Below, piece by piece: positions 20,354 through 40,226 of a DNA stretch of 64,000 nt. The notes below the pieces were generated by a model, which was not told the DNA's origin, made no database searches, and saw only the letters and a list, made by a program, of their open reading frames with translations. Each line of letters starts with the position of its first letter. Positions within the stretch are counted from its first letter, which is position 1. Source of the DNA: a virus. The position numbers and the translations under genes are program-made. Location: the IMG/VR virus record IMGVR_UViG_3300006033_000027, positions 1 to 64,000 of that record. One strand, written 5' to 3'.

Positions 20354-20382
20354 TTGACAAACGGTTTCGTTTCAAATAGAGT
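20354..20382 (+). promoter_or_regulatory. Strong promoter of the Y RNA array
   Basis: TTGACA, exactly 17 nt, then TAGAGT, in an AT-rich setting. Transcription would start near 20389, about 20 nt before the first Y RNA stem. Everything to the Ro60 gene can be read from it. Confidence 0.75.
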
Positions 20383-20409
20383 GTTCATCACCGAAGCAAC
20401 TACATAAAA

Positions 20410-20487
20410 ATTTTCAGCCGGAGTGATCGGGTTATCAATCACACTGTAACTGCGACAAAACACCCGGCCACGCAACTTGCTGAAAAT
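20410..20487 (+). ncRNA. Y RNA-like element A (short form)
   Basis: A 9-bp terminal stem ATTTTCAGC/GCTGAAAAT, then the 19-nt 5' strand (20418-20436) ending GGGTTATC and the opposing 3' strand with AACTTG. Placement of the bulged C after the terminal stem, the 19-nt spacing and GTTATC all match the Ro60-binding strand of animal Y RNAs (human Y1 ends GAGTTATC, with ACTTG on the other strand). The upper stem CGGG/CCCG closes an A-rich loop. No tRNA-like module. Confidence 0.82.
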
Positions 20488-20504
20488 CACAACTACATAA
20501 TGAC

Positions 20505-20634
20505 TTCGAAAGCCGGATTGATCCGGTTATCTCTTGAAAAGAAGTGGTTCTGGGTTCGAATCCCAGTCGGCTCATTGAGTCGGTAGCTCAACGGAAGAGC
20601 ACTAAACGGTCGGGTCTCCCAACTTGCTTTCGAA
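20505..20634 (+). ncRNA. Y RNA-like element B with permuted tRNA-like module
   Basis: Terminal stem TTCGAAAGC/GCTTTCGAA (9 bp), Ro-type 5' strand at 20513-20531 ending CGGTTATC, and AACTTG on the 3' side. Inside is a tRNA-like fold in circularly permuted order: T-arm CTGGG-TTCGAAT-CCCAG (20550-20566), acceptor strand TCGGCTC, a 3-nt loop ATT, acceptor strand GAGTCGG (7 pairs with two G-U), TA, then D-arm GCTC/GAGC (20586-20600). This is the plan of bacterial YrlA RNAs, which mimic tRNA. Confidence 0.88.
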
Positions 20635-20639
20635 AAATC

Positions 20640-20755
20640 GTGGTGGCCGACGAGGTTCGGTTATCGGTAATAGATGGTTCAACTCCACCCGTCCCCGCAT
20701 GGGGACTGATCCCACCCTCAGCGGTGGGCTTCCGGATTTCACACCTTGCCACTAC
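20640..20755 (+). ncRNA. Y RNA-like element C with permuted tRNA-like module
   Basis: Terminal stem GTGGTGGC/GCCACTAC (8 bp, one G-U), Ro-type 5' strand at 20647-20665 ending CGGTTATC, CCTTG on the 3' side. The inner module has a T-loop TTCAACT on a GATGG/CCACC stem (one mismatch), an acceptor-like stem GTCCCC/GGGGAC closed by a GCAT loop (20691-20706), and a D-arm-like stem CCCACC/GGTGGG (20711-20728). Confidence 0.82.
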
Positions 20756-20761
20756 AAATTC

Positions 20762-20822
20762 TTGCGGTCGGAGTCGTCGGGTTATCTTTGGTAAATGTCC
20801 CGGTGCCACCTACTTACCGCAA
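20762..20822 (+). ncRNA. Y RNA-like element D (minimal form)
   Basis: Terminal stem TTGCGGT/ACCGCAA, Ro-type 5' strand at 20768-20786 ending CGGGTTATC, upper stem CGGG/CCCG and TACTT on the 3' side. Only 61 nt, so little more than the Ro-binding stem. Its end is 30 nt before the Ro60 ATG, so it also forms part of that gene's leader. Confidence 0.78.
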
Positions 20823-20852
20823 ATCACACAGAAAGAAGGAGGTTCAGCAACA

Positions 20853-22427
20853 ATGACTGCCAGTGTTCTCCAGGGTATCCGCCCGAATGAAACCGTCCAG
20901 ACCGAGCAGGCCCGGGAAGATCAGGTCAAGAACAACGCCGGGGGTTTCGTCTTCGAGATCAGCCCTCTCCAGCGGTTCCGCCGCTTCCTCATTCTCGGCA
21001 CTGAGGCTTCGACTTACTACCAGTCGGCCCCGGCTCTCTCGCGTGAGAACGCTCAGAACCTCTTCGCCCTGCTCGGATCGGACCACCGCGGCGTGGTCAA
21101 TGAGATCCTGGAGGTCTCCACCAACGGACTCGCTCCCCGGCAGGAGCCCACGCTCTTTGCGTATGCGGCTGCCGTCAGTCCGGAATTCGGCTCGGTCGAG
21201 GACCGCACCTACGCGCTGTCCCTCTTCAACCAGATCGTGCGGACGGGTACCCACCTGTTCACCTTCCTGGGCTTCGTGGAGCAGTTCCGAGGCTGGGGTA
21301 CGGCTCTGCGCCGTGCCGTTGCGGACTGGTATCTCTCGAAGGAGCCGGACAAGCTCGCCTATCAGGTGGTCAAGTACAAGCAGCGCGAGGGTTGGTCCCA
21401 TCGGGATGCCCTGCGTCTGTCCCACCCGAAGGCGGACAACTGGGACACCAACGACATCTTCGGCTACATCACCCAGAACGGTGAGACCAGCAACAGTCTG
21501 ATCGAGGCTGCCCGGGGCGTCCATGACGGTTCGGTGTCGATCTCCGCGGGCATCGAGGCTGGCCTTCCGTGGGAGGCTCTGCCGTCTGAGGCACTGACCG
21601 AAGCGAAGACCTGGGAGGCCCTGCTGGAGCACAACTCCGTGCCCCTTGGCGCCCTGGTCCGACAACTTGGCCGACTGACCAACCTGGATCTGCTGAAGCC
21701 GTTCGCGGACACCAAGAGCACGATCCTGGGGCTGCTGCGTGACGAGCGCAACATCCTGAAGTCGCGCATCCACCCGTTCAACCTGCTCAACGCCTGGTAC
21801 ACCTACCGGAGTGGCCGTGGCTTCCGAGGCAATGCCTCCTGGAACCCGGACGGTGACGTGGTGGCGGCTCTGGAGGCTGCGTTCTACACCTCCTTCCCGA
21901 ACGTCAAGCCCGCGGGGAAGAACACCCTCGTGGCTCTGGACGTGTCCGGCTCGATGGGTTGGGATACGATCAACAACTCGGCCCTGACCCCGCGTGAAGC
22001 GTCGGCAGCAATGGCCCTGGTTACAGTGAAGACGGAGCCGAACACGCATGTGGTTGCGTTCTCGACCTCACTTACTCCGTTGCCCATCGCGTCTGCATCC
22101 ACCCTGGATGAGACACTGCGGATCGTGGACAGCGTTCGAATGGGTGGCACCGATGTCTCCCTGCCGATCCTGTACGCACAGGAGCGTGGTCTCCAGGTGG
22201 ATACCTTCATCAGCTACACGGACAACGAGACGTGGAGCGGTCGGATTCACCCCTACCAGGCCCTCACGCAGTACCGGAAGTCTTCGGGTCGCTTTGCGAA
22301 GAACGTGGTGGTCGGAATGACTGCCACTGGATTCTCCGTGGCGGACCCCCGAGACCCGGGCTCGCTCGATGTGGTCGGCTTCGATTCGTCGGCGCCCTCG
22401 GTGATCTCTGAGTTCTCTCGGGGTTGA
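20853..22427 (+). CDS. rsr: Ro60/Rsr-like TROVE-domain RNA-binding protein
   Basis: 524 aa from the ATG at 20853, which has AAGAAGGAGG upstream; a longer reading from 20544 runs through the Y RNAs and is rejected. The N-terminal two thirds is the helical-repeat TROVE ring that binds Y RNA outside and misfolded RNA ends in its hole. The C-terminal von Willebrand A domain keeps a full MIDAS: DVSGS at residues 363-367, T433 in GGTDVS, D457 in YTDNE. In bacteria Rsr works with exoribonucleases in RNA decay and ribosomal RNA maturation. The four Y RNA elements immediately upstream are its likely partners. Confidence 0.93.
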   Translation: MTASVLQGIRPNETVQTEQAREDQVKNNAGGFVFEISPLQRFRRFLILGTEASTYYQSAPALSRENAQNLFALLGSDHRGVVNEILEVSTNGLAPRQEPTLFAYAAAVSPEFGSVEDRTYALSLFNQIVRTGTHLFTFLGFVEQFRGWGTALRRAVADWYLSKEPDKLAYQVVKYKQREGWSHRDALRLSHPKADNWDTNDIFGYITQNGETSNSLIEAARGVHDGSVSISAGIEAGLPWEALPSEALTEAKTWEALLEHNSVPLGALVRQLGRLTNLDLLKPFADTKSTILGLLRDERNILKSRIHPFNLLNAWYTYRSGRGFRGNASWNPDGDVVAALEAAFYTSFPNVKPAGKNTLVALDVSGSMGWDTINNSALTPREASAAMALVTVKTEPNTHVVAFSTSLTPLPIASASTLDETLRIVDSVRMGGTDVSLPILYAQERGLQVDTFISYTDNETWSGRIHPYQALTQYRKSSGRFAKNVVVGMTATGFSVADPRDPGSLDVVGFDSSAPSVISEFSRG

Positions 22428-22452
22428 CATAGCTCGGTCACCCCGATAGACT
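22424..22452 (+). promoter_or_regulatory. Promoter of whiB-like gene, leaderless
   Basis: TTGACA overlaps the Ro60 stop codon; after exactly 17 nt comes TAGACT, which ends 9 nt before the ATG at 22462. No Shine-Dalgarno fits in between, so the mRNA probably begins at or within 3 nt of the start codon. Confidence 0.78.
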
Positions 22453-22461: not shown

Positions 22462-22734
22462 ATGACCGCGACAGACAACTTCATAGAGGCAGCCCGGACA
22501 CAGCGACCAAAGTGCCGGAGTCCCATTGCGAACTTCATCCCGAAGCATAGTCCCTGGGTGGACTACGAACAGGATGAAGCTCCGAGCACCCGAGACGCCG
22601 AACTGCTGTGCGAGGGCTGCCCCCTGAAGGATCTCTGCTACGAGATGGCTGTCGAAAACGGAGAGGAACACGGAATCTGGGGCGGGGTTCGATTCGACCC
22701 CAAGCCACGCAAGAGAAGGAGGAAGAATGGCTAG
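22462..22734 (+). CDS. WhiB-family Fe-S transcription regulator
   Basis: 90 aa with the four Wbl cysteines (C18, C50, C53, C59; the CEGCPLKDLC spacing), the GIWGG turn at 71-75 and a basic C-terminal tail (KPRKRRRKNG). Wbl proteins bind a 4Fe-4S cluster and sit on the primary sigma factor at promoters; phage members such as TM4 WhiBTM4 interfere with host WhiB and cause exclusion. The family is almost confined to actinobacteria and their phages, the best host clue here. Confidence 0.93.
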   Translation: MTATDNFIEAARTQRPKCRSPIANFIPKHSPWVDYEQDEAPSTRDAELLCEGCPLKDLCYEMAVENGEEHGIWGGVRFDPKPRKRRRKNG

Positions 22735-22939: not shown

Positions 22940-23112
22940 GCGACGAACTGATCCAAGAGCTTCGTCGTCAGATCGACCAGCTTGATGACGACAACTCCGA
23001 ACTTCAGAACGAGAACCATCGTCTCCGGGATCGTATCGAAGAGTTGGAACAGCAGGTTGTTCAACTGACTGATGCGATGGATGACATCAATCGGTTCACG
23101 AGGCAGTTCTGA
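22936..23112 (+). CDS. Short coiled-coil protein, 58 aa
   Basis: GTG start. Nearly the whole protein is a heptad-repeat helix (LRRQIDQLDDDNSELQNEN), leucine-zipper-like, so it probably dimerises. Coupled by 4-nt and 1-nt overlaps to its neighbours, including the Pnkp gene. Confidence 0.65.
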   Translation: MSDELIQELRRQIDQLDDDNSELQNENHRLRDRIEELEQQVVQLTDAMDDINRFTRQF

Positions 23113-24029
23113 TGGCTGAACGTAAGCTCATCCTCACCCGAGGCATCCCTGGCAGTGGCAAGACCACCTGGGCCAAGCAGCAGCCCCACCCCCGGGCGAA
23201 CCGGGATGACCTGCGCTGGCAGTTGTTCGGTCACCGCCCCACTGACGGACTGCTGAACGGGGAACAAGAGTCGGCTGTCACCCGGGCTCAGCGGGATCTC
23301 GTCAAGGCGTTCCTGCGTCACCATGACACGGTGATCGTAGACGACACCAACCTGAACAACCGCTTCATGGGTCAGTGGTATCGCTTCGCTGAACTGAACG
23401 GTCTCACCGTCGAGTTCAAGGACTTCGAGGTTCCCCTGGAGACGGCTCTGGACTGGGACCGCAACCGGGAATACCCCGTGGGTGAAGCGGTGATCCGGAA
23501 GTTCTACGGTCGTACTAAGGACGGCAAGCTCCCCGCTCCACCGACCCGCAAGCACGTCCGTGCAGACCTCGGTGCCGTGACCTTCGAGCAGTACGTCCCG
23601 GGAGAATCCCTCCCGTGGGCCTGGGGGTTCGATCTCGACGGCACCCTGGCGCACATCCAGGGTGAGAACCCGCGCAGTCCCTACGACGGTGCTCGTGCGG
23701 GAGAGGATGCTGTTGATCCCATCGTTCGAGACATTGCTCTCTCGTTCCAGCGGAACTACTACAAGATCCTGATTGTCTCTGGTCGTAATGAAGACTATCG
23801 CCACGTCACTGAAGAGTGGCTGGAGCGCATGGGGATTCACTACCACGATCTGTTCATGCGAGCTTCCGGTGATGACCGTTCCGACAACATCGTGAAGTAC
23901 GAGATCCTGCGGGATCAGATCGCACCGAAGTATGCCCTGAGGGGCATGGTGGACGACCGAGATCAAGTAGTTGCCATGTGGCGCCAGGTTGGTGTAAAGT
24001 GCCTCCAGGCCGAGTACGGCGATTTCTAA
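23112..24029 (+). CDS. Polynucleotide 5'-kinase / 3'-phosphatase
   Basis: 305 aa with the T4 Pnkp layout. N-terminal kinase: P-loop GIPGSGKT at residues 11-18, a DDT motif near 77-79 and an Arg lid (DRNRE, 116-120). C-terminal HAD phosphatase: DLDGT with D174 and D176, SGR and a late DDR. The enzyme heals broken RNA or DNA by adding 5' phosphate and removing 2',3'-cyclic or 3' phosphate. The RNA ligase gene follows 15 nt later, forming a repair cassette. Confidence 0.94.
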   Translation: MAERKLILTRGIPGSGKTTWAKQQPHPRANRDDLRWQLFGHRPTDGLLNGEQESAVTRAQRDLVKAFLRHHDTVIVDDTNLNNRFMGQWYRFAELNGLTVEFKDFEVPLETALDWDRNREYPVGEAVIRKFYGRTKDGKLPAPPTRKHVRADLGAVTFEQYVPGESLPWAWGFDLDGTLAHIQGENPRSPYDGARAGEDAVDPIVRDIALSFQRNYYKILIVSGRNEDYRHVTEEWLERMGIHYHDLFMRASGDDRSDNIVKYEILRDQIAPKYALRGMVDDRDQVVAMWRQVGVKCLQAEYGDF

Positions 24030-24044: not shown

Positions 24045-25343
24045 ATGAGTATCAAGCTTGAAGAACCGGAGAACAAGAACTACGCCGCTCAGGTGGTGAC
24101 CATCCATGAGGTACATCCGCTGGATGGAATGGACCGCGTGCAGGGAGCATCCGTACTGGGCCTCCAGGCCATCGTCGGACTTGAAGTGAAGCCGGGTGAC
24201 CGGGGTATCGTCTTCGGCCCCGAGACGCAGCTTTCCCAGGACTACACCTACTTCAACAACCTCCACCGACACGGGGACCGGAACGTTGACCAGTCCGTGC
24301 AGGGCTATCTCGAAGATAACCGCCGAGTCCGTGCGATCAAGCTCCGCGGCCACCGCTCCGACGCGCTGTTCATGCCGCTGGAATCCCTGGACTGGGCCAC
24401 CCTGGACTACGATCTGCTGCCGGACGGAGCCTACTTCGACAAGATCGGAGACCACCCGATCTGCAACAAGTACGTCGTCCGGCAGCCGAAGGCTCACGAC
24501 CGGGCTCAGGCCAAGCACGACCGTGCCTTCCGCCGCGTGGACAAGATCTACCTGCCGGAGCATGTCGAGACCGACAACTACTTCTACTACGGCCACGTCA
24601 TCCCGGACTTCGCGGATGTCGTCGTGACTCAGAAGCTCCACGGGACCAGCGTTCGACTCGCCAACACAGTGGTCAAGCGCAAGCTGACCTGGTTGGAGAA
24701 GCTGGCGAAGAAGGTCGGCATCAAGGTCGCGGAGACCGAGTTCGACTTCGTGGCGGGCAGCCGGAAGGTCATCAAGGACCCCAACAACCCGTACCAGAAT
24801 GACTTCTACGGTACCGACATCTGGACTGAGGCGCTGGGCACGTACAGCTACGCCATCCCGGAGAACTTCATCGTCTACGGGGAACTGGTCGGCTGGGTTG
24901 ATCCCGGCAAGCCGATCCAGAAGAATTACACCTACGAGCAGGTGGACGACTACGAACTGTACGTCTACCGTGTCACTGTGGTCACGCACAGCGGTCGTCA
25001 GGTGGATCTCTCTTGGGATGCCGTGCGGCGATTCACCGACGAGAACGGTCTGAAGCATGTGCCGGAACTGTGGCGCGGTCGCAAGGAGTTCTTCGATCCC
25101 GAGAAGTGGCTGGACATTCGGTTCCTGGACACCAACGTGACCCACCGGGACTATCCGGTGCGACTGTCCAACAAGGACACCGTTGACGAGGGCGTGGCGA
25201 TCCGCTACGATGGTGCGGGTATGCCGCAGTTCTTCAAGGCGAAGTCCCCGATCTTCCTGGCCCATGAGACCAAGCTTCTCGACCGGGGTGAAGTGGACAC
25301 CGAGACCCAAGGCAATGAACAACCCGAAGAAATTCTGGTCTGA
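24045..25343 (+). CDS. RNA ligase (DraRnl/Rnl5-like)
   Basis: 432 aa. The nucleotidyltransferase motif I is KLHGTSVR with the adenylated lysine K197; later VYGELVG (motif III region), EGVAIR (motif IV) and FKAKS (motif V) follow in order. About 190 residues before motif I fit the N-terminal OB-fold domain of Deinococcus Rnl-type ligases, unlike T4 Rnl1 or Rnl2. It seals the 5'-phosphate/3'-OH ends produced by the upstream Pnkp. AGAAAGGGG precedes the ATG. Confidence 0.9.
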   Translation: MSIKLEEPENKNYAAQVVTIHEVHPLDGMDRVQGASVLGLQAIVGLEVKPGDRGIVFGPETQLSQDYTYFNNLHRHGDRNVDQSVQGYLEDNRRVRAIKLRGHRSDALFMPLESLDWATLDYDLLPDGAYFDKIGDHPICNKYVVRQPKAHDRAQAKHDRAFRRVDKIYLPEHVETDNYFYYGHVIPDFADVVVTQKLHGTSVRLANTVVKRKLTWLEKLAKKVGIKVAETEFDFVAGSRKVIKDPNNPYQNDFYGTDIWTEALGTYSYAIPENFIVYGELVGWVDPGKPIQKNYTYEQVDDYELYVYRVTVVTHSGRQVDLSWDAVRRFTDENGLKHVPELWRGRKEFFDPEKWLDIRFLDTNVTHRDYPVRLSNKDTVDEGVAIRYDGAGMPQFFKAKSPIFLAHETKLLDRGEVDTETQGNEQPEEILV

Positions 25344-29383: not shown

Positions 29384-31618
29384 TTGAGCATAGACTACGA
29401 AGCCTTTCTCTCCGCTGTGTGGGGAGATCTCGAAGGGAACGTAGTCATCGCTCGGCCCTCGGCGCCGGGTTTGGCTCCGAACATCCACGACTGGTTCTAC
29501 TATCCGAACGATCTCCCAGAGATGGTGAACCACATCGAGTGGCACAACGACATCGACCTGTACCTGGGGGTCTCCACCTACGGGGAAGAACTCAACGAGC
29601 GGGGCACCCGGGCCAAGACCAAGGAGAACACTCTCCAGGCTGCGGCGGTGTGGTCGGACGCTGACTCCTTCGATCCCGAGGGCTTCCGCGTCGAACCGTC
29701 GATCATCGTTCACACCTCCGAAGGGCACACCCATTGCTGGTGGCTTCTCGATGAGGTCGTTGACGCCGATGACGCCGCCCACGTCTCGGACCTGATTGCC
29801 CACGCCCACCGCGGAGAAGGTGCGGACTGGACCGGCTCTTCCGCCAAGATCCTTCGCATCCCGGGCACCACGAACAACAAGTACGGTCAGGCCCAAGATG
29901 TCACCGTGGACTACGGGGGCACACTGTACTCCCTGGACGAGATCGAAGACGCGTACTCGGACATCGACATCCGAGCCACCACCTCTGAGCCGGGAGATTT
30001 CGTTGACCCGCTGGAGGAAGTGGAGTCGGCGCTGGATCTGATCGAGCAAATCCCAGAACATCGCACCGACATCCGGGAACTCCTTTACCACGAACCCCCC
30101 GAGGGCAAGCGGTCGGAGATGCGGCACAAGCTCCTGCGAGAACTGATCGAGTTGAACCAGTTCACGGGAATGCAGGTGGCGGCTATCGCCTGGGTCGCCA
30201 AGTGCTCGTCCAAGTGGGTCCACGATGACCCCCGCGGCTTCGAGGGCATGATCTACGAGGTCAACCGAGCCCACGCCAGGCCGGGCACCCCCGGCACGAC
30301 ACCCCCTTCCGTGCCGCCTAGCCCCGACCCGGTAGTAGATGACTCGATCCGGCCCGAGCGGGTCAACCTGCTGTCGGACAAGGAGCGGAACTCCCTGGGA
30401 ACCGACGACTGGGTGGAGAAGTACCTCGCCGCGGGCTACAAGCTCCACGGAGAGAGGACCAACGAGCCCTACTACCGCACGGGAGCCATCCTCGTCTTGT
30501 CGTCCACCCTGGGGGATCTCGGGTACTTCGACTTCGAGGGGCGCCGGGTGAACACGAACAACTACAACCTGACTATCGGACATTCGACCACGGGGAAGTC
30601 TGAGGAAGCGGAACTGGCAGACGAGGTGATCGTGGGGTATTGGAACGGATACTACAACCCGTTCATCGGTGGAAACGCCTCTCCCGCAGGACTAGCCCGA
30701 GAGATCATCGAGAATCACAACGGCTCCGCGGCGCTCTACACCTACGACGAGGCGAGCGCGGTCTTCCGAGGCATGAAGAACGCGGACTGGCGAAGTGAAC
30801 TCTCGGAGTTTTTGCTCAGTGCCTACGACGGCAAGGTGGAGAAGGTCCACAAGGTCTCCAGCCAGGACATCTCCAACGTCGATGTCACGGCCAATCTCTC
30901 GTTGCGGTTCCTCACCACCCCGGAGAAGGCGTTCGAGTCCATGACCATTGGCATGTTCAACGACGGTCTGCTCGCCCGATTCATCATCACAGTGGGTAAG
31001 CCGAAGGAACGCATTCGCCGGAAGAATCGTGTGCGACACGAGGCGGGGGATGCTCAGTCCATCAAGAGGAATCTGTGGCTGGATCTGGAGAAGTCTCGGA
31101 AGGATCTGGTCGGAGGATCAGGGTTCCCGGCATCCAAGCTGGAGTTCACCTTCTCGGATGAGGCTCTGAACCGGCTGGACGAGGCTCTGGACTCTCTGGA
31201 TGACCGCTTCGAACACGAGGATCGCTATGAAGCCACCCTCTCTCCGATCATCAACCGTCTGACGAACACCGCAAAGAAGACCGCGCTGCTGTTGGCCCTG
31301 TACGAGGGTCATCGGGAGGTGCAGCTTCGTCACATGCTGCTGGCCCTACGAGAGGTCGAGATCTGGTTCGGAAACTCGATCTGGCTGCTGCGTATGCTGT
31401 CGTCGTCCGAGTTCGCCGCGGACTGTGATCGGCTGGAAGCCTGGATCGCCCGACAGCCGAAGAGCCACGTCCGGAGGGACAAGGTTTATCGCTACCAGAA
31501 GGATGCTCTCCCCATGCAGGTGGAAATGCGCTTGACTTCTTTGCGATCCCAGGGGAGAATCAAGGACACCAATGTCGATGGCGTTCCGTACATCGCCATC
31601 ACACAGAGAGGGGCATGA
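29384..31618 (+). CDS. Primase-helicase (DUF3987-type)
   Basis: 744 aa from a TTG at 29384, chosen because AGGAGG lies just upstream; the ATG 10 codons earlier has none. The N-terminal part resembles RepB/PrimPol-like primase proteins (AKILRIPGTTNNKYG, HTHCWWLLDE). The C-terminal part has a P-loop GHSTTGKS at about 399-406 and a DEASAVFRGM segment, as in DUF3987 helicase-like domains. Likely the replicative primase and helicase of the phage. Confidence 0.8.
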   Translation: MSIDYEAFLSAVWGDLEGNVVIARPSAPGLAPNIHDWFYYPNDLPEMVNHIEWHNDIDLYLGVSTYGEELNERGTRAKTKENTLQAAAVWSDADSFDPEGFRVEPSIIVHTSEGHTHCWWLLDEVVDADDAAHVSDLIAHAHRGEGADWTGSSAKILRIPGTTNNKYGQAQDVTVDYGGTLYSLDEIEDAYSDIDIRATTSEPGDFVDPLEEVESALDLIEQIPEHRTDIRELLYHEPPEGKRSEMRHKLLRELIELNQFTGMQVAAIAWVAKCSSKWVHDDPRGFEGMIYEVNRAHARPGTPGTTPPSVPPSPDPVVDDSIRPERVNLLSDKERNSLGTDDWVEKYLAAGYKLHGERTNEPYYRTGAILVLSSTLGDLGYFDFEGRRVNTNNYNLTIGHSTTGKSEEAELADEVIVGYWNGYYNPFIGGNASPAGLAREIIENHNGSAALYTYDEASAVFRGMKNADWRSELSEFLLSAYDGKVEKVHKVSSQDISNVDVTANLSLRFLTTPEKAFESMTIGMFNDGLLARFIITVGKPKERIRRKNRVRHEAGDAQSIKRNLWLDLEKSRKDLVGGSGFPASKLEFTFSDEALNRLDEALDSLDDRFEHEDRYEATLSPIINRLTNTAKKTALLLALYEGHREVQLRHMLLALREVEIWFGNSIWLLRMLSSSEFAADCDRLEAWIARQPKSHVRRDKVYRYQKDALPMQVEMRLTSLRSQGRIKDTNVDGVPYIAITQRGA

Positions 31619-31962
31619 TGACCGAACACTACCCGCACCTGGAAGTCCAGGAGCTTTCTGACGAAAGTGATCTCTTCCTCGTTACCCGAACCGATGGGCG
31701 ATATGCCTCCATAGATGATTCAGAAGCGGTCCTAGCTGTTCTAGATTTTCTGTTCGAGACCGACCGAGATTACCTGGATGACTACTTCGAACTTCTGATG
31801 ACATTGCCTGTCGTCTCATATAACCATCTCTATTGGAACGATGACCCGGAGGTGGACGGGGCGGTTTTGTATCGTGACTGGGTGCGTCGAGATGAGACTT
31901 TCTACGGAACCCTGATCGGGGAAGCTCAGCCGATTTCGTTGGGGAAAGGCATTCTGCGGTGA
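31615..31962 (+). CDS. Hypothetical acidic protein, 115 aa
   Basis: ATG at 31615 or 31618, overlapping the primase stop. Acidic (LSDESDLFLVTRTDGRYAS). No domain recognised. Confidence 0.6.
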   Translation: MMTEHYPHLEVQELSDESDLFLVTRTDGRYASIDDSEAVLAVLDFLFETDRDYLDDYFELLMTLPVVSYNHLYWNDDPEVDGAVLYRDWVRRDETFYGTLIGEAQPISLGKGILR

Positions 31963-32396
31963 CTCGCATTCTCGTAACGGGTTCCCGGGACTGGGATGAC
32001 CCCGAGTTCGTGGACGACTTGATCTGCGATTACTGGAGATGGCACGAGTCCGCTCTCGTAGTGGTGCGGGGTGACTGCCCAACGGGTGCTGACGCCCACG
32101 CAGGTCAGGCAGTAATACGCCTCCAGGGTGAGGGCTTCGACGCGACCGAAGAGGTCTACAAGGCTTATTGGGAGCAGTACGGCAAACGCGCCGGGTTTCT
32201 CCGCAACAAGGAGATGGTGGACGACGGAGGGGCGGAGGTGTGCCTGGCGTTCATTCGGAATGGTTCTCGTGGTGCTACCATGACCGCGGATTTGGCCGAG
32301 AAGTCCGGGATTCCCACTGTGAGATTTGAACGGTGGTCACCACACATTCGCCCGGGCTTGAAGTACGTCCCGGGTGGGACGGTGACTTTCGAATGA
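31959..32396 (+). CDS. SLOG-domain protein (YspA/YpsA-like)
   Basis: 145 aa, GTG start. Rossmann-like start RILVTGSRDW, then VVRGDCPTGADAHAG with the Gly/Asp residues typical of YspA-type SLOG proteins, and AGFLRNKEMVDDGG. SLOG domains bind nucleotides or nucleotide-derived signals (NAD, ADP-ribose, cADPR-like). Its partner here is unknown; the NAD-related genes lie 4 kb downstream. Confidence 0.75.
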   Translation: MTRILVTGSRDWDDPEFVDDLICDYWRWHESALVVVRGDCPTGADAHAGQAVIRLQGEGFDATEEVYKAYWEQYGKRAGFLRNKEMVDDGGAEVCLAFIRNGSRGATMTADLAEKSGIPTVRFERWSPHIRPGLKYVPGGTVTFE

Positions 32397-32414
32397 CGAC
32401 TGGAGCACGATCCC

Positions 32415-32510
32415 GTGGCTAAGAAAGTCCTTGTGTTCGACATCGAGAGCTACGGTGCCGAGTTCCTATGGGACATGCCTCCCCGCCAGTTCATGCGGTT
32501 GTTCCAGTAG
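32415..32510 (+). pseudogene. Truncated 5' end of DNA polymerase gene
   Basis: From GTG 32415, 31 codons encode MAKKVLVFDIESYGAEFLW and on to LFQ, then TAG. The same peptide, slightly diverged and with other codons, starts the intact polymerase at 33063. This is the stranded original start, cut off where the HNH gene was inserted. Codon use is that of the phage core. Confidence 0.9.
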
Positions 32511-32512
32511 TG

Positions 32513-32521
32513 TGGTAGGGT
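32513..32521 (+). promoter_or_regulatory. Extended -10, leaderless start of HNH gene
   Basis: TGG-TAGGGT ends 6 nt before the ATG at 32528. The nuclease gene therefore seems to carry its own leaderless promoter at the insertion junction. Confidence 0.5.
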
Positions 32522-32527
32522 GCTTGG

Positions 32528-33070
32528 ATGAACTACAAACGTCAGCCCCGGGCAGGAATGTGCGTACATGCAGACTGTTCTAATGGGCAGTACGCTCGGG
32601 GTCGTTGCAAATACCACTACAACTTAGATAGAGAACACGGTCTTTTTGGACACCCGACGTGCCCTGAAGATGGATGCGACCGTGCTGCGACAGTATCGGG
32701 GCGATGCCGACTTCATCACGAGAGATTCATAGGCGGTCGAGAAATGGGGGCACCCTTGCGGAAAACGGATTCCGACGGCTGGGGGTCTTGGTACGTTGAA
32801 AAGTCCTCGGGGTATGTTCAGCGAGCACGCAGGGGGGTGGGTCGGAAATCCCACGAGAGGCAATATCAGCACCGTGTCGTTATGGCGGAACATATTGGTC
32901 GCCCCCTGACAAGAGAAGAAACTGTTCACCATGTCAATGGGGATCGCTCGGATAACAGATTGGAGAACTTGGAGTTGTGGAGTAGTTCACAACCAGCGGG
33001 ACAGCGGGTTGCGGACAAAGTAGCTTGGGCTCGGGAGATTCTATCTCGTTACGGAGAGTCAGATGTCTAA
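32528..33070 (+). CDS. HNH homing endonuclease with two zinc fingers
   Basis: 180 aa. Two C-x4-C ... C-x2-H fingers (MCVHADC ... RCKYH and TCPEDGC ... RCRLH) precede an HNH_3 core HRVVMAEHIGRPLTREETVHHVNGDRSDNRLENLE. Same finger module as the 8649 and 15978 genes. Clearly more AT-rich than the polymerase body. It separates the stranded polymerase start from the functional polymerase gene, whose start it overlaps by 8 nt. Confidence 0.9.
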   Translation: MNYKRQPRAGMCVHADCSNGQYARGRCKYHYNLDREHGLFGHPTCPEDGCDRAATVSGRCRLHHERFIGGREMGAPLRKTDSDGWGSWYVEKSSGYVQRARRGVGRKSHERQYQHRVVMAEHIGRPLTREETVHHVNGDRSDNRLENLELWSSSQPAGQRVADKVAWAREILSRYGESDV

Positions 33071-34943
33071 AAAGAAGGTTCTAGTTTTTGACCTGGAAAC
33101 CTACGGAGCAGAGTTTATTTGGGATATGCCCTCCAGGTCCTTTGTTCGCCTCATGCAGTACGCCTGGGGCTCCGATGGCGAGGTCCATCTGACCACGGAC
33201 TACGACGAGGCTATGGATCTGCTGCTCCAGGCCGACCGCTGGATTGGACATAACATTATTAGTTACGACCTTCCGGCTATGTTCGGCAAGGAGTCCACGG
33301 TGCCGCTGGAGGCTGCCCAGGCGGGCAAGGTCTTCGACACGATGGTTCATGCCAGTCTGGTGTACCCGCCGCCGTCCGTCTTCACGACTCGGGAGGGGCA
33401 CACCCACTATGACGGGTCGAGCCCGGGCAAGGCAAAGAAGTGGCTGGCTCTGGATAACCTGTGCTTCCAGTTGGGACTCTCCGGTAAGGTGGCTGATCTG
33501 AAGAAGCTCGCTGCTCAGTACAGGGTAGACCGGGATGACCCGGAGCAGATGGAAGAACTTCTCAACATCTACGATGCCTGGTCGGAAGACGAACTCCCCC
33601 CGTGGGCCTTCGACCCGTATGGGCGCATCCCCCTGGGAGACCCGGACTTCCTGGAGTACGCCGAACAGGATGTGGTTGCTGAGCAGGAACTCACTGTCGA
33701 ACTGACGAAGCAAACCCCCCTGACTGACTACCACTGGCGGGAACAACTGGTCGTCTCAATCAACGCACAGATCACTCGCAACGGATTCACCGTGGACACC
33801 GCAGCGGCTCAGGAGCGAGTAGAAGAACTTGCTATCCGGCGCCAAGAGATCATGGACGAGATCGGGCAGAAGTATGAACTGCCCACGGAGGGGAAGAGCC
33901 CCTGGGCGACCAACGCGGGCAAGGAAGTCATCTTTGCGGTCCTCGCAGAGCACGGCATCACACCGGAGAACACCCCCTCGTGGCCCAAGACCGACACCAA
34001 CAATCCCTCCCTGGGTGGGGAAGCTCTTATCCAGATCACCGAGGGTACCGGCGCCGCGGAGTTCGCTCAGGCTCTCGCGGAGTTGAAGGGCCAGCGATCC
34101 CTCGCTCAACTCGCCCTGGACTCCACGCACAGTGACGGTAAGGCTCACCCGGACATCACCACCTTCCAGCGATCCGGTCGCACCAGTGTCACCAAGCCGG
34201 GCCTCACCGTCTGGACAGACAAGGGTGATAACCGGGTGGAGAAGCGGTACTTCGTGGCCTCCCCGGGGCGGAAGATCGTGGAGTTCGACTACAGCCAGGC
34301 GGACGCCCGGGTGGTCGCGGCATACTCAGGTGATTGGGAGTTCGCCAAGCGGTTCGAACCCGGTGCCGACGCCCATGACATCTCCGGTCGAGTCTTCTTC
34401 GGAGATAAGTACGACCGAGAAGAGCACCGGCAGATCGCCAAGGCAGCCAACCATGCTCTCGGATACCGGGTCGGAAAGAAGAAGCTCGCCACGGTGATCG
34501 GAACCACGGAAGAAGTCGCTGGCAAGTTCATTCGTGCTTACCAGAACGAGTATCCGCACGTTTACTCCTGGCAGGAGGATGCCACCCGGCGCGGGGAGAG
34601 CGGATGGATCACGAACGACTGGGGCCGCAAGATGCGAGTGGACAAGGACCGCTCGTTTACGCAGTCCTCGGCGCTGCTGGGTCAGTCCGGCACCCGGGAG
34701 ATCATGTACGACGGGATGATCCGGATGCTGAACCAAGCTCCACGCCTTTTGACCTGGATCGTCGCCCCGGTGCATGACGCCCTCGTGTTCGACATTCCCG
34801 AGGACGAATTGGAGTGGACTCTCCTGACTATTCAAGAGTGCATGGAGCAGATGTTCAAGCCCAAGGACGCCCGGGGTCAGGAGATCTTCTTCTCCGTGGA
34901 CCACGGCCACCCGGCAGATAACTGGGAGGAAGCCGGACACTAA
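33063..34943 (+). CDS. polA: Family A DNA polymerase with 3'-5' exonuclease
   Basis: 626 aa. Exonuclease motif DLETYG at the N-terminus (D and E ligands), WIGHNIISYDLP as Exo II. Polymerase motif A VEFDYSQADARV near residues 405-417, motif B RQIAKAANHALGYRVG near 457-472 and motif C APVHDALVF near 567-575. Replicates the phage genome. The first 30 or so codons are AT-rich and recoded compared with the stranded copy at 32415, and appear to have come in with the HNH gene. Confidence 0.95.
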   Translation: MSKKKVLVFDLETYGAEFIWDMPSRSFVRLMQYAWGSDGEVHLTTDYDEAMDLLLQADRWIGHNIISYDLPAMFGKESTVPLEAAQAGKVFDTMVHASLVYPPPSVFTTREGHTHYDGSSPGKAKKWLALDNLCFQLGLSGKVADLKKLAAQYRVDRDDPEQMEELLNIYDAWSEDELPPWAFDPYGRIPLGDPDFLEYAEQDVVAEQELTVELTKQTPLTDYHWREQLVVSINAQITRNGFTVDTAAAQERVEELAIRRQEIMDEIGQKYELPTEGKSPWATNAGKEVIFAVLAEHGITPENTPSWPKTDTNNPSLGGEALIQITEGTGAAEFAQALAELKGQRSLAQLALDSTHSDGKAHPDITTFQRSGRTSVTKPGLTVWTDKGDNRVEKRYFVASPGRKIVEFDYSQADARVVAAYSGDWEFAKRFEPGADAHDISGRVFFGDKYDREEHRQIAKAANHALGYRVGKKKLATVIGTTEEVAGKFIRAYQNEYPHVYSWQEDATRRGESGWITNDWGRKMRVDKDRSFTQSSALLGQSGTREIMYDGMIRMLNQAPRLLTWIVAPVHDALVFDIPEDELEWTLLTIQECMEQMFKPKDARGQEIFFSVDHGHPADNWEEAGH

Positions 34944-34946
34944 GCC

Positions 34947-34975
34947 TTGACGTGAGGCTGTGGGATGGTTAGACT
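34947..34975 (+). promoter_or_regulatory. Promoter for the proteasome-like / NAD gene block
   Basis: TTGACG, 17 nt, TAGACT, immediately after the polymerase stop. Expected start near 34982, giving a short leader with GAAAGGGG before the next ATG. Confidence 0.72.
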
Positions 34976-35010
34976 GTCCCGGTACAACGAGAGAAAGGGG
35001 TTACACAGGA

Positions 35011-35193
35011 ATGCTTTGGGTTGCAATAATTCTCACCCTGCTGGTTCTGTTCATCGGAGCGGTTTGGGTGGCAATTTCTTGGGAGTTGGACTGGCTTCTG
35101 GGGATACTGGGCTGGTTCTTGGGGTTGACTGCCTCAGCAGCGGCCATCACGGGTGTCGTTGTGGTCTGGATGGCAGCAGTGGGGGCTCTCTGA
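35011..35193 (+). CDS. Small membrane protein, 60 aa
   Basis: ATG at 35011. Two hydrophobic stretches (LWVAIILTLLVLFIGAVWV and a second one) nearly fill the sequence. First gene after the 34947 promoter; stop overlaps the next ATG by one base. Confidence 0.65.
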   Translation: MLWVAIILTLLVLFIGAVWVAISWELDWLLGILGWFLGLTASAAAITGVVVVWMAAVGAL

Positions 35194-35720
35194 TGACCAC
35201 GATTGCGATGGTAGAGCACCCCGACAAGGTAGAGATCGCCTGGGACAGCTTCATCACTTACCATACGGTAGAGGAACTGAACCAGGAATCCCACAGCAAG
35301 GTCTTCGAGAACTCCACCGTGGTGTTCGGAGTCTGTGGTCTTCTTCGGGTGCTCCAGGTGTTCGAATTTATGAGCATCCCCAAGCGCAAGAAGAACACAG
35401 ACGGGCGGACCTACCTGGCGAAGAAGCTTGTCCCCGCGATGAAGTCCGCCTTGAAAGAAGCCTACGATCACGAGAAGTCCATCGACAGCACTTGGGAAGC
35501 CCTGGTCATCGTTGATGGAAGTGTCTACAACGTCGCCAGTGACTTTTCCTGGCTCCGGATGGAGAGCGATTTCTACGCCATCGGGTCTGGTCAGCGCATT
35601 GCCCGGGGGTACTACGAGGGCACCAAGGACCTGAAGGGTTCCCTGGAAGCCGCTGCGAAGTGGGACCCCCACACAGGCGGAACCATCCACTACCTCGAAG
35701 CCGAGAAGGCCGTCGCATGA
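35193..35720 (+). CDS. HslV/proteasome-like Ntn hydrolase
   Basis: 175 aa. After removal of Met the protein begins TTIAMV, as mature HslV and proteasome beta subunits do (catalytic Thr1). WDS supplies the Asp of position 17 and SHSKVF the Lys of position 33; later YAIGSGQRIARG matches the conserved GSG turn. Length is right for HslV. No HslU/ATPase partner is visible nearby, and there is no propeptide. It may be a peptidase acting alone or with host unfoldases. Confidence 0.78.
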   Translation: MTTIAMVEHPDKVEIAWDSFITYHTVEELNQESHSKVFENSTVVFGVCGLLRVLQVFEFMSIPKRKKNTDGRTYLAKKLVPAMKSALKEAYDHEKSIDSTWEALVIVDGSVYNVASDFSWLRMESDFYAIGSGQRIARGYYEGTKDLKGSLEAAAKWDPHTGGTIHYLEAEKAVA

Positions 35721-36580
35721 GCGTCAAATTCGAGACCCGCATCGGCCCAGGCTTCTGGACCCACCCCACCTTCGAGGGAATGCACTTCCCTGCGGGGGAG
35801 GCGCACGTCAAGGTCATCAACGAGAATGACCACAAGGGCGAACTGACCGAGGTAGCCACACTAAAAGGGGCGGATGGCAACGACCTGATGCTTCTTGCTG
35901 CTTGGGCCGATGCAGTTTGGGCTCGCGGTGGTCGCTCCGTGCTCATCGCTCCGTACCTGCCCGGTGCCCGGCAGGATAAAGACCTGGACTCGACTGCTTA
36001 CCGAGACTTTTTTGACGGGTTGACGCTGGAGCAGATCATCGTCTTCGACCCGCACTCACAGGCCGCAGTGAACTACTACTGGAATCCCAAATTGACGGTG
36101 CTACACAGCGCACCTATCGTCCGTAAGATCGTGGGCCGGGTGGACAGCGACGAGAAGGCTCCGAACTACCACGGTCTGATCTGTCCCGACGAGGGTGCCA
36201 TCGAGCGTACCAAGAGGATCGCCTCCGCTGTTCACCTGCCGATCTACTACGCCCGCAAGAAGCGGAACCCCGACACGGGCAAGCTCTCAGGCTTCGAGTG
36301 CGACCCGCTGCCCGACACCGGAAAGTTTCTCGTGGTCGATGACATCTGTGATGGCGGTGGCACCTTCCGCGGACTTGCTGAGGTCACCGGCCTGCCGAAG
36401 GAGCGCCTGGGTCTGTATGTCAGCCACGGGGTCTTCAGCGGATTGGCCCCCAACCTGTTCGATGATTTCGGACACATCTACACGACCAATTCCTATCCCG
36501 CTCAGTGGAACTTGAATCCTCCAGCCAACCTTTTCACCGAATTCGACATCGACCCACTACTGAAGGAGGCCATTCAATGA
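35717..36580 (+). CDS. PRPP-synthetase-like enzyme (possible ADPR-PP synthetase)
   Basis: 287 aa. Prs features: PYLPGARQDK at 79-88 (ATP site), FDPHS at 110-114 and the ribose-5-phosphate/PRPP loop VVDDICDGGGTF at about 206-217. Prs transfers pyrophosphate from ATP to ribose-5-phosphate. Because the next gene is NAMPT-like and there is no NMN adenylyltransferase beside them, it could instead be the NARP1 enzyme Adps, which pyrophosphorylates ADP-ribose. Sequence reading alone cannot separate the two. Confidence 0.88.
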   Translation: MSVKFETRIGPGFWTHPTFEGMHFPAGEAHVKVINENDHKGELTEVATLKGADGNDLMLLAAWADAVWARGGRSVLIAPYLPGARQDKDLDSTAYRDFFDGLTLEQIIVFDPHSQAAVNYYWNPKLTVLHSAPIVRKIVGRVDSDEKAPNYHGLICPDEGAIERTKRIASAVHLPIYYARKKRNPDTGKLSGFECDPLPDTGKFLVVDDICDGGGTFRGLAEVTGLPKERLGLYVSHGVFSGLAPNLFDDFGHIYTTNSYPAQWNLNPPANLFTEFDIDPLLKEAIQ

Positions 36581-38112
36581 TTGCACCCACCGTCACCGCT
36601 CCACTGTTCGAGACCGACGCTTATAAACTCGGCCACAAGGACCAGTACCCCGAGGGGACTGAGTACGTCTACTCCAACTTCACCAACCGCGGTTCCCGGC
36701 TGCCGGAGGTGACCAGCGTGGTCCACTTCGGGCTCCAGGCGTTCATCGAACGATACTGTATGGAAGCCTTCGAGCCGTTCTTCGAAGCTGACGAGGACTT
36801 CGTGGCTCAGGAGTACGAGGACGTAGTGACCTCCATCCTCGGACCCAACAACATCGGCTCCGACCACATCCGGGCTCTGCATCGCAAGGGCTACCTGCCG
36901 TTGAAGTTCTGTGCCGTGCCCGAGGGCACGCTGGTGCCGCTGCGAGTTCCGTCATTCACCGTGGAGAATACCGATCCCGAGTTCTTCTGGCTGACCAACT
37001 ACATCGAGACCGTGCTGTCGGCCTCCGTGTGGCACCCCAGCACCACGGCGACCATCGCTCACGAGTATCGGCTTCTGCTAGATGCCTGGGCGGAGAAGAC
37101 GGGCGGAGATCCGCTGTTCGTACCCTGGCAGGGCCACGACTTCTCATATCGGGGGCTCCCGGGGACCGACGCGGCAGCCGCCTCCGGCGCCGGGCACCTG
37201 CTGTCGTTCAACGGCAGTGACTCCCTGGCTTCTTTGGCGTGGATCGACGGCTATTACGGATCATGGCGTGGTGACCCGATCCTCGGTAGCGTTCCAGCCA
37301 CGGAGCACTCCGTCATGTGCGCGGGTGGTATGGACGACGAGCTTGGCACCTACGAGCGTCTGCTGAACACCTACCCCAGCGGCATCGTCTCCATCGTGAG
37401 CGACACCTGGGACCTCTGGCGCGTGCTCACAGAGCACCTGCCCACGCTGAAGGACAAGATCCTCGCCCGCGACGGCAAGGTGGTCATCCGCCCCGACTCC
37501 GGCAACCCCGTGGACATCTTGACTGGGACTGTCTCCTTCGAGGGTAGCGGGCACGGTGAAGAATGGTACGCGGGTTGGTCCAAGAACGAGGGCGCAACCT
37601 CTGCCGAAATCGGCGTCGTGGAACTGCTCTGGAACACCTTCGGCGGCACGGTGAACGAGAAGGGCTACAAGGTTCTGGACTCGCACATCGGCACCATCTA
37701 CGGCGACTCGATCACCCTGGAGCGCGCCGACGAGATCTGCCGCCGCCTGGAGGCCAAGGGCTTCGCGTCCACCAACGTGGTCTTCGGCATCGGCTCGTAC
37801 ACCTACCAGTACGTCACCCGAGACACCTTCGGCTCCGCGATCAAGGCCACCTGGGTCCAGATCAACGGCGAGGGCAAGGCCATCCAGAAGTCTCCGGTCA
37901 CTGACTCGGGCCTGAAGAAGTCCGCCACGGGGCGGCTGGCTGTGATCGAGAAGGACGGTGTGCTCACACTGGTGGAGAATGCGACTCCGTATGACGAACT
38001 GGAGAGTGAACTCCGCACCACCTGGGTGGATGGACACTTCACGATTCATCAGAGCTTCGACAGCGTGCGCGATGTCCTGGCGGATTCCGGCGTGAAGCTG
38101 GTGCTGCCGTGA
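36577..38112 (+). CDS. NAMPT-like phosphoribosyltransferase (possible Namat)
   Basis: 511 aa from the ATG at 36577 (GAAGGAGG upstream; overlaps the Prs-like stop). NAMPT motifs are clear: GTDAAAASGAGH ... FNGSDS, VPATEHSVM with the conserved active-site His (H244) and VIRPDSGNP at 304-311. NAMPT makes NMN from nicotinamide and PRPP; the phage NARP1 relative Namat joins nicotinamide directly to ADPR-PP to give NAD+. Paired with the Prs-like gene, it would rebuild NAD+ from the products of NADases. Confidence 0.93.
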   Translation: MIAPTVTAPLFETDAYKLGHKDQYPEGTEYVYSNFTNRGSRLPEVTSVVHFGLQAFIERYCMEAFEPFFEADEDFVAQEYEDVVTSILGPNNIGSDHIRALHRKGYLPLKFCAVPEGTLVPLRVPSFTVENTDPEFFWLTNYIETVLSASVWHPSTTATIAHEYRLLLDAWAEKTGGDPLFVPWQGHDFSYRGLPGTDAAAASGAGHLLSFNGSDSLASLAWIDGYYGSWRGDPILGSVPATEHSVMCAGGMDDELGTYERLLNTYPSGIVSIVSDTWDLWRVLTEHLPTLKDKILARDGKVVIRPDSGNPVDILTGTVSFEGSGHGEEWYAGWSKNEGATSAEIGVVELLWNTFGGTVNEKGYKVLDSHIGTIYGDSITLERADEICRRLEAKGFASTNVVFGIGSYTYQYVTRDTFGSAIKATWVQINGEGKAIQKSPVTDSGLKKSATGRLAVIEKDGVLTLVENATPYDELESELRTTWVDGHFTIHQSFDSVRDVLADSGVKLVLP

Positions 38113-38372
38113 GCGCCATCGCTCTCATCCGGACGGAGACCGGAAGCGTCTACTGGTTCGATCCCACGGAGATGACCCTGACCCGAGTGGTTGTCGGCGC
38201 CAAAGCGAATGATCTTCGCCGAGATGGGGAAGCTCTGAAGGTTCGTGGTGTCAGTGAACTCCGGGTCGGGAAGTCCGCGGTGTTCACCCTGGAGCCTTTG
38301 GGCGAGGGGGATGTCACAGTGAGAACCACAAGCCCCGTTGTCTCTATCGTGAAGGTGGTGATCGGATCGTGA
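38109..38372 (+). CDS. Hypothetical beta-rich protein, 87 aa
   Basis: GTG start overlapping the NAMPT stop by 4 nt. Begins MSAIALIRTETGSVYWFD. Same general type as the 18668 gene (short beta-rich). Unknown. Confidence 0.6.
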   Translation: MSAIALIRTETGSVYWFDPTEMTLTRVVVGAKANDLRRDGEALKVRGVSELRVGKSAVFTLEPLGEGDVTVRTTSPVVSIVKVVIGS

Positions 38373-38962
38373 GCGAGCTATTCGGTCTGGGTGGACTCGC
38401 CCGGGCAGGCAAGGACACGGTGGCGGATTACCTCGTGTCCGGGTACGGCTTTGTCAAGATCGGCATGAGTGACCCGCTGTGGGACGTGCTCCTGACTCTT
38501 GACCCCGTGGTGGAGTTCGTCTATACCGGGCTCGAACACGTCACCCCCGAACGCAGAGTCTCGGACATCTTGGATATGCTGAACGACGACCGCACGGAAG
38601 CTAAGTCTCAGTTCCCCGAGATCCGCAGGCTGCTCCAGGTTCTCGGAACGGAGGTGGGCCGAGCTATTGACGAAGATCTCTGGGTGAACTTGATGCTCGA
38701 CAAGGTGACGGAGACCATGAACCGAGGCTCTAGTGTCGTGGTCACCGGGATTCGGTTTCCCAACGAACTGGAGGCTATCGGGGCGGCGGGAGGATGGACT
38801 GTCTGGGTAGAGCGGGCTGCGGAAGGAGTCGGCGCCGGTAACCATGCCAGTGAAACCTCCGTCGAGGACGCAGATTTCGAAATCCTCATCGAGAACAACG
38901 GAACACTCGGGGCTCTCTACCATCAGGTAGACCGTTTCCTGGGGGAGGCGAGTATCCGATGA
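38369..38962 (+). CDS. Deoxynucleoside monophosphate kinase
   Basis: 197 aa. P-loop at the N-terminus (GLARAGKDTVADYL), VVVTGIRFPNE and a C-terminal ENNGTLGALYHQVD helix, the pattern of phage dNMP kinases (T4 gp1-like). It phosphorylates dNMPs for DNA synthesis. GTG start. Confidence 0.85.
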   Translation: MSELFGLGGLARAGKDTVADYLVSGYGFVKIGMSDPLWDVLLTLDPVVEFVYTGLEHVTPERRVSDILDMLNDDRTEAKSQFPEIRRLLQVLGTEVGRAIDEDLWVNLMLDKVTETMNRGSSVVVTGIRFPNELEAIGAAGGWTVWVERAAEGVGAGNHASETSVEDADFEILIENNGTLGALYHQVDRFLGEASIR

Positions 38963-39057
38963 CCGCTCCAAAGGGTCTGTTCATGCAGACGTTCACCGGG
39001 CCGGGGACTCGGAGCCTGATGAGCTTGAAGACTGTGATGTCTGCGGCTCGGTTGTGA
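38959..39057 (+). CDS. Possible small gene, 32 aa
   Basis: The ATG overlaps the kinase stop. Another frame of the same DNA (SEPDELEDCDVCGS) has better-looking composition and a CxxC but no start codon, so this stretch could also be the remnant of a zinc-binding gene. Confidence 0.3.
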   Translation: MTAPKGLFMQTFTGPGTRSLMSLKTVMSAARL

Positions 39058-39064
39058 GGATGCT

Positions 39065-39595
39065 GTGAACGACATCGTCCTGAAGACGATCCACGGCAGC
39101 CACCTGTATGGCACTGCGAACGAAAACAGCGACCGGGACAACTACATTGTCTACCGATCTCGGATGAAGCCCGTGCAGACCATCTCCAGCGACGGGCAAG
39201 ACCGCTTGGAGATCGGCTGGCCCAACTTCGTAGAACAGTGCAACCGCGGTGTACCGCAGGCATTGGAGGCCATGTTCTCCCCGAAGGCGACCATTGACGC
39301 CTACCCGGAGTTCCGGGCTCACTACTTCGCGGGCGGCGCCGACGTGTTCGACCTCTTTCAGCGAAAGATCAAGTCGTTCTTCCTAGATGAGCGTGATCCG
39401 GTCAGGTACAAGAAGCATTCGATCCGCCTCGCCCTGGAGTTGCGAGATCTGCGCTCTTGGGGTAGATTCAATCCTGTGCTGACCCCGGAACGACTGACCA
39501 CGATCAACTACATCATGCACACCCCGGGCCTGACCCTGGAAGGTGTCTACGACCTGGCAACCCCCAGCATGTTCGAGAAGGAGCAAACGGACTGA
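39065..39595 (+). CDS. RlaP-like nucleotidyltransferase
   Basis: 176 aa, GTG start. The N-terminus has GSHLYGTANENSDRD, the DNA polymerase beta-type motif GS...G...SDxD (D23, D25) as in RlaP (COG3541), a family found beside RNA ligases. Likely adds or removes nucleotides at RNA ends, although the substrate is not known. It is shorter than typical RlaP proteins (about 250 aa or more). Confidence 0.72.
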   Translation: MNDIVLKTIHGSHLYGTANENSDRDNYIVYRSRMKPVQTISSDGQDRLEIGWPNFVEQCNRGVPQALEAMFSPKATIDAYPEFRAHYFAGGADVFDLFQRKIKSFFLDERDPVRYKKHSIRLALELRDLRSWGRFNPVLTPERLTTINYIMHTPGLTLEGVYDLATPSMFEKEQTD

Positions 39596-40062: not shown

Positions 40063-40070
40063 GAGGAATC

Positions 40071-40223: not shown

Positions 40224-40226
40224 AAT
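40221..40226 (+). promoter_or_regulatory. TAGAAT -10, possible leaderless start
   Basis: TAGAAT overlaps the stop of the previous gene and ends 9 nt before the ATG at 40236. No -35 and no TGn extension. Confidence 0.35.

What the first reader, a model, noticed from the sequence alone, without database searches (positions are those of the whole stretch)
20354..22427. Phage Ro60 gene preceded by an array of four Y RNA-like elements
Four separate stem elements lie in 410 nt between a strong TTGACA-17-TAGAGT promoter and a TROVE/Ro60 gene. Each has a perfect or near-perfect terminal stem of its own sequence, then a 19-nt strand ending in GTTATC (20418-20436, 20513-20531, 20647-20665, 20768-20786), and ACTTG or CCTTG/TACTT on the other strand. 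The 19-nt length, bulged C and GTTATC match the Ro-binding strand of animal Y RNAs. Stems differ but pair, which is covariation within the window. Ro genes are known in some mycobacteriophages; I know of no described four-member phage Y RNA array.
Basis: partly seen in the sequence, partly recalled or inferred. Interest (0 to 1): 0.92.

Follow-up and report, generated by a model that had tools for sequence, protein, structure and literature searches.

The report
Phage Ro60 gene with four Y RNAs
A virus of actinobacteria carries its own version of the human Ro60 protein and, just before it, four small RNAs of the Y RNA type that should bind that protein, two of them shaped partly like transfer RNA; this is a real but already known kind of system, and such RNA clusters prove to be common and unannotated in phages.

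Summary
Four Y-RNA-type elements (E1 20410-20487, E2 20505-20634, E3 20640-20755, E4 20762-20822) lie between a TTGACA-17-TAGAGT promoter and a genuine Ro60/Rsr gene (20853-22427). Covariance models built only from relatives find all four: E1 and E4 are the only hits of the plain-Y model in 64 kb; E2 scores 87 bits (E 5e-18) and E3 40 bits (4e-7) with the tRNA-like-Y model. Of 183 other Ro loci from phages, viral contigs and bacteria, 165 have at least one such element, two to four are usual, and one phage has eight (Trina). Phage Y RNAs have been reported before. Likely mechanism: one transcript, cut in the 5-17 nt linkers into four RNAs that bind the phage Ro ring; plain ones block or regulate it, tRNA-like ones tether an effector. 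Less expected: E4 ends 30 nt before the ro start codon, an arrangement seen in many relatives, which makes feedback of Ro on its own mRNA testable. New member of a known kind.

The parts
20354..20382 (+). sigma-70-type promoter TTGACA-17-TAGAGT, expected start near 20389
   Evidence: consensus scan, 10 of 12; function inferred
20410..20487 (+). Y element E1, plain (no tRNA module); stem ATTTTCAGC/GCTGAAAAT
   Evidence: R1 32.2 bits E 1e-4 in 64 kb; Rfam RF01656 29.7 bits, under its gathering score
20505..20634 (+). Y element E2, YrlA type with permuted tRNA module; stem TTCGAAAGC/GCTTTCGAA
   Evidence: R2 87.4 bits E 5e-18; Rfam YrlA 36.3 bits, under its gathering score of 69
20550..20566 (+). 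T arm of E2, CTGGG TTCGAAT CCCAG
   Evidence: sequence; R2 alignment; tRNA model half-match 20515-20574
20567..20583 (+). acceptor helix of E2, TCGGCTC ATT GAGTCGG, 7 pairs
   Evidence: sequence; helix covaries in relatives
20586..20600 (+). D arm of E2, GCTC AACGGAA GAGC
   Evidence: sequence; R2 alignment; tRNA model half-match 20577-20626
20640..20755 (+). Y element E3, degenerate tRNA module: T-loop TTCAACT 20678-20684, acceptor GTCCCC/GGGGAC 20691-20706, hairpin 20711-20728 in the place of the D arm; second helix of 9 pairs
   Evidence: R2 40.2 bits E 3.7e-7; structure -45.1 against minimum -45.9 kcal/mol
20762..20822 (+). Y element E4, plain, in the leader of the ro gene; stem TTGCGGT/ACCGCAA
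   Evidence: R1 36.2 bits E 1.5e-5 in 64 kb
20836..20842 (+). ribosome-binding site AAGGAGG of ro, 13 nt after the E4 stem
   Evidence: sequence
20853..22427 (+). Ro60/Rsr gene, 524 aa, TROVE ring and vWA domain
   Evidence: Pfam; D. radiodurans Rsr 2nvo E 2.6e-107, human Ro60 9nen 2.2e-106, Xenopus Ro 1yvp 1.1e-103
23112..24029 (+). polynucleotide kinase/phosphatase, possible partner
   Evidence: Pfam HAD_PNKP 1.3e-41; link to Ro inferred from neighbourhood only
24045..25343 (+). RNA ligase, possible partner
   Evidence: Pfam RNA_ligase 1.5e-15; link to Ro inferred from neighbourhood only

Best explanation
A phage-encoded Ro ribonucleoprotein locus. One promoter drives a transcript with four Y RNAs followed by ro; the RNAs are freed by cleavage in the short linkers (inferred: no room for separate promoters or terminators). 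Each Y stem binds the outside of the phage Ro ring (inferred from the conserved stem and protein). The plain RNAs E1 and E4 would cover or gate the ring; the tRNA-like ones E2 and, less surely, E3 would tether an effector or a tRNA-acting enzyme, as YrlA does with PNPase. The complex would handle damaged or misfolded structured RNA during infection, perhaps feeding tRNA fragments to the phage's kinase and ligase encoded 0.7 kb downstream (inferred, weak). The confidence is for 'phage Y RNA array with its Ro'; the downstream role is much less certain (about 0.4).
For: Window-free models find all four elements. Relatives: 38 tRNA-like Y RNAs pair in 94.6% of cells with covariation 0.57 against 0.18 in shuffles, and the acceptor helix, not used in choosing them, has changes on both sides in all five pairs; 52 plain ones score 0.67 against 0.21. 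With strands chosen by motif alone, the outer stem pairs 6 of 6 in 48% against 4% when strands are swapped. Adjacent elements lie 17, 5 and 6 nt apart here, and 20 nt or less apart in 56 of 104 viral pairs. The Ro protein aligns full length with Rsr, keeping the stretch KYKQREGWSHRDALRLSH and the vWA motif DVSGSM. Review of YrlA: basal stem binds Rsr, tRNA-like domain tethers PNPase (PMC8394870).
Against: No transcript, processing or binding data exist for this virus. The kinase and ligase are not a conserved neighbour of Ro: of 183 relatives only one has a kinase within about 3 kb and none the ligase. The D arm of E3 is replaced, so its tRNA mimicry is doubtful, and the single-sequence minimum-energy fold of E2 prefers another inner pairing (-44.2 against -38.3 kcal/mol with the module enforced). 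E4 alone does not fold better than shuffles (z -0.99).
Confidence: 0.88

Rival explanations
1. The elements, above all E4, act in cis: they stay in the leader of the ro mRNA, and Ro that binds there blocks its own ribosome-binding site, so free Y RNAs and the leader compete for Ro and set its level. (This can hold beside the main explanation.)
For: E4 ends 30 nt before the start codon and 13 nt before AAGGAGG. In relatives the last element lies within 40 nt of the start in 30 of 67 viral contigs, 20 of 76 bacterial loci and 3 of 14 phage isolates that have an upstream element, and in viral contigs it is mostly the plain type (40 of 67).
Against: Closeness also follows from simple co-transcription. 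In other loci the last element is tRNA-like or further away. The start codons of most relatives were chosen by rule. No pairing of E4 with the ribosome-binding site was seen.
Confidence: 0.2
2. The tRNA-like RNAs are decoys: they occupy host anticodon nucleases or other tRNA enzymes released against the phage.
For: E2 has T arm, acceptor and D arm but the Ro stem where the anticodon arm would be. For Salmonella YrlA it was proposed, not shown, that it inhibits the nuclease without being cut (PMC7790460). The phage carries tRNA-repair-type enzymes.
Against: Decoys need no Ro stem, and all four elements keep it; two have no tRNA module; the RNAs would be far less numerous than tRNAs unless strongly expressed.
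Confidence: 0.15
3. The stretch is a decayed tRNA array and the Y likeness is chance.
For: The phage has eleven tRNA genes, and a junction of two tandem tRNAs imitates the module: the tRNA-like-Y model hits such junctions at 58496-58553 and 2226-2305.
Against: Those hits are partial and lack the Ro stem; here the stems are four different paired sequences with the same inner strands, each confirmed by a full-length model match.
Confidence: 0.01

Closest known systems
YrlA, bacterial Y RNA (Rfam RF02553; Salmonella, Deinococcus, Mycobacterium)
   Same: Basal stem with the Ro-binding strands, permuted T arm-acceptor-D arm module, next to a Ro60/Rsr gene (E2 fully, E3 in part)
   Different: Below Rfam's gathering score (36.3 of 69 bits); carried by a phage; upstream of ro, beside plain Y RNAs
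YrlB-type plain bacterial Y RNAs (rsr-yrlBA-rtcBA operon of Salmonella, PMC7790460)
   Same: More than one Y RNA in one operon with Ro
   Different: Here four, upstream of ro, and near a kinase and ligase rather than RtcB/RtcA; sequences of YrlB were not compared
[quoted passage not shown]
   Same: Ro-binding strands and GUUAUC; E1 and E4 match RF01656 at 29.7 and 29.9 bits, below its cut-off of 38
   Different: No RF00019 match; the loop and upper domains differ; shorter
Y RNAs proposed in phages (mycobacteriophages in Chen et al. 2014 as cited by PMC12282133; Listeria phage CKA15)
   Same: Phage Ro homologue with abundant or predicted small RNAs nearby
   Different: Here the elements are defined by structure and models; expression is unknown

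Membership tests
Ro60/Rsr protein | TROVE ring and vWA domain over the full length | tested here: met
   Pfam above cut-offs; full-length match to Rsr 2nvo, E 2.6e-107
Y RNA | Closed 5'/3' stem plus second helix with the conserved Ro-binding strands | tested here: met
   All four by models trained without the window; stem test
Y RNA | Gene next to a Ro60 gene | tested here: met
   Array ends 30 nt before ro
Y RNA | Expressed and bound by Ro | not testable with these tools
   Needs RNA sequencing and pull-down
YrlA | tRNA-like module: T arm, acceptor, D arm in permuted order | tested here: met
   E2: all three arms, 87.4 bits. E3: T arm with a mismatch, acceptor, but another hairpin for the D arm. 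E1 and E4 have none and are not YrlA
YrlA | Match above Rfam gathering score (a curation threshold, not a biological feature) | tested here: not met
   E2 36.3 bits against 69; none of the YrlA matches found in phage relatives reaches it either, the best being 52.1 bits, so it is a limit of that model
RYPER (Rsr-Y RNA-PNPase) | Y RNA tethers Ro to PNPase | not testable with these tools
   No binding data; a PNPase gene in the phage was not searched for
RNA repair operon (rsr-yrlBA-rtcBA) | Ro and Y RNAs in an operon with RtcB/RtcA | tested here: inconclusive
   The nearby repair genes are a kinase and a PF09414-type ligase, not seen as conserved neighbours; RtcB itself was not searched for

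The most novel reading that the evidence does not exclude
Phage Ro controls its own synthesis by binding a plain Y RNA left in its mRNA leader, with the other Y RNAs acting as titrating competitors, and this leader arrangement is ancient, shared by bacterial and phage Ro genes.
Probability: 0.2. Interest if true: 0.6.

Novelty: new member of a known kind. Interest (0 to 1): 0.42.

Why it matters
It shows that Y RNA arrays are a usual, unannotated part of phage Ro loci and gives models that find them. A compact locus with two plain and two tRNA-like Y RNAs is a good place to ask what the two kinds do, what phages use Ro for, and whether Ro regulates its own mRNA.

Tried and rejected
Rfam at gathering thresholds gives only tRNAs here. 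The plain-Y model does not find E2 and E3 in full because of their long inserts, so a second model was made. A motif-only test kept just 42 elements because its pattern was strict, but still showed stem pairing. The Ro tree places the window beside one viral contig (support 0.96) with weaker or unclear grouping deeper, so no origin is claimed. Linkage to kinase and ligase was tested and is not conserved. Chen 2014 and the reviews of Sim and Wolin are not held in the library, so what they say about array size could not be read. A chance origin was rejected by shuffles, opposite strand and models.

Full report
What is there. The sequence between 20354 and 20852 holds a TTGACA-17-TAGAGT promoter, four Y-type elements and the ribosome-binding site of a 524-residue gene. 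The record is a 65 kb virus contig. Portal, head protease, tail and terminase genes mark it as a tailed phage, and a WhiB gene and the nearest relatives, mostly Gordonia, Mycobacterium, Streptomyces and Microbacterium phages, point to an actinobacterial host; the host itself is inferred.

The protein. It has Pfam TROVE and vWA_Ro60 domains well over their cut-offs and aligns over its length with D. radiodurans Rsr, and in two stretches with human Ro60 and Xenopus Ro. In 'phages' 354 records encode a relative, many of them named Ro-like RNA binding protein. Phage Ro is therefore not new.

The elements. Each has its own outer stem of 7-9 pairs, then CGGA (CGAC in E3), a second helix, GTTATC, a variable middle, the other strand of the second helix, and ACTT or CCTT before the closing stem. 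The four outer stems pair with themselves and poorly with each other. Rfam, searched at relaxed threshold on 601 bases, gives YrlA for E2 and a nematode Y-like family for E1 and E4, all below gathering score. E2 contains CTGGG-TTCGAAT-CCCAG, then TCGGCTC-ATT-GAGTCGG, then TA and GCTC-AACGGAA-GAGC: the T arm, acceptor helix and D arm of a tRNA in permuted order, with the Ro stem in the place of the anticodon arm. E3 keeps a T arm with one mismatch and an acceptor of six pairs, but has a six-pair hairpin where the D arm should be.

Independent test. From 184 Ro loci (the window, 18 cultured phages or prophages, 85 viral contigs, 80 bacterial loci) a detector found 429 elements on the sense strand and 6 on the other; 166 loci have at least one. 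Some loci are near-duplicates, so these counts are not independent events. Two covariance models were then built from relatives without the window: 52 plain elements (R1) and 38 tRNA-like ones (R2). R1 finds E4 (36.2 bits) and E1 (32.2) and nothing else in 64 kb. R2 finds E2 (87.4 bits, E 5e-18) and E3 (40.2, E 3.7e-7), and with filters off E1 (32.1) and E4 (26.0) as well. E-values are rough by the tool's own statement. Covariation is far above shuffles and slid controls in both sets; the outer stem was part of the selection, but the acceptor helix was not.

How usual it is. Two or more elements are the rule: 48 of 85 viral contigs, 12 of 18 phage isolates and 64 of 80 bacterial loci. Four or more occur in 15, 4 and 18 of these. 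Trina has eight and prophiGD43A-5 six, supported by the models. About half of all elements carry a T arm. So the array and its mix of plain and tRNA-like members are ordinary for the class. That Y RNAs occur in mycobacteriophages is stated in PMC12282133, citing Chen et al. 2014. From memory, not checked here, that paper reports likely Y RNAs in more than 250 bacterial and phage species, at least one per species with a tRNA-like domain.

Mechanism. The linkers of 17, 5 and 6 nt (sequence) leave no room for promoters or terminators, and no sense-strand terminator-like site was found, so one transcript that is cut afterwards is the simplest reading. Binding to Ro is inferred from the conserved strands. 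From the literature the stem of YrlA binds Rsr and its tRNA-like part tethers PNPase (PMC8394870), and in Salmonella ro and two Y RNAs lie in an RNA repair operon (PMC7790460). Here a kinase/phosphatase and an RNA ligase lie 0.7 kb downstream of ro, which invites the same idea, but relatives do not share that neighbourhood, so it carries little weight.

The least expected point is the place of the last element. E4 ends 30 nt before the start codon. In 30 of 67 viral contigs with an upstream element the gap is 40 nt or less, and many of those last elements are plain. This is what feedback of Ro on its leader would look like, and also what plain co-transcription would give; an experiment has to decide.

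Verdict. Observation confirmed, interpretation supported and refined, novelty modest: a new member of a known kind.

Noticed in passing
L174 (2291), L182 (2456), L161 (2285), L172 (2282) Methylobacterium/Methylorubrum; L138 (2633) Trueperaceae; L146 (2419) Alphaproteobacteria; L158 (5115) Anaerolineae: Seven Y elements are permuted differently: the 3' half of the D arm comes first, then (in most) an anticodon-like hairpin, T arm, acceptor, and the 5' half of the D arm last, so the Ro stem sits in the D loop rather than in the place of the anticodon arm. L174 and L138 fold into the whole permuted cloverleaf. I do not know this variant from the literature.
   Followed up: partly
L021 1375-1453 (prophiGD43A-5); L025 2146-2354 (Trina): Annotated tRNA-Thr and a pseudo 'tRNA-OTHER' overlap Y RNA elements and are probably misread Y RNAs.
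   Followed up: partly
58496-58553 (-), 2226-2305 (-): Junctions of tandem tRNA genes look like the permuted tRNA module to the model R2, a trap for searches and a possible origin of the module.
   Followed up: no
22424-22452: A second TTGACA-17-TAGACT promoter-like site at the end of ro, in front of a WhiB gene (22462-22734).
   Followed up: no
upstream of E1 (about 20399-20408) and of E2 (about 20491-20500); linker in L006: The stretch AACTACATAA stands before both E1 and E2, and ACAACTACAT recurs in a linker of viral contig L006: possible duplication trace or processing signal.
   Followed up: no
36505-38112: Nicotinamide phosphoribosyl transferase gene (PHROG 448, E 2e-194), the strongest DNA likeness to known phages in the stretch 30000-50000.
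   Followed up: no
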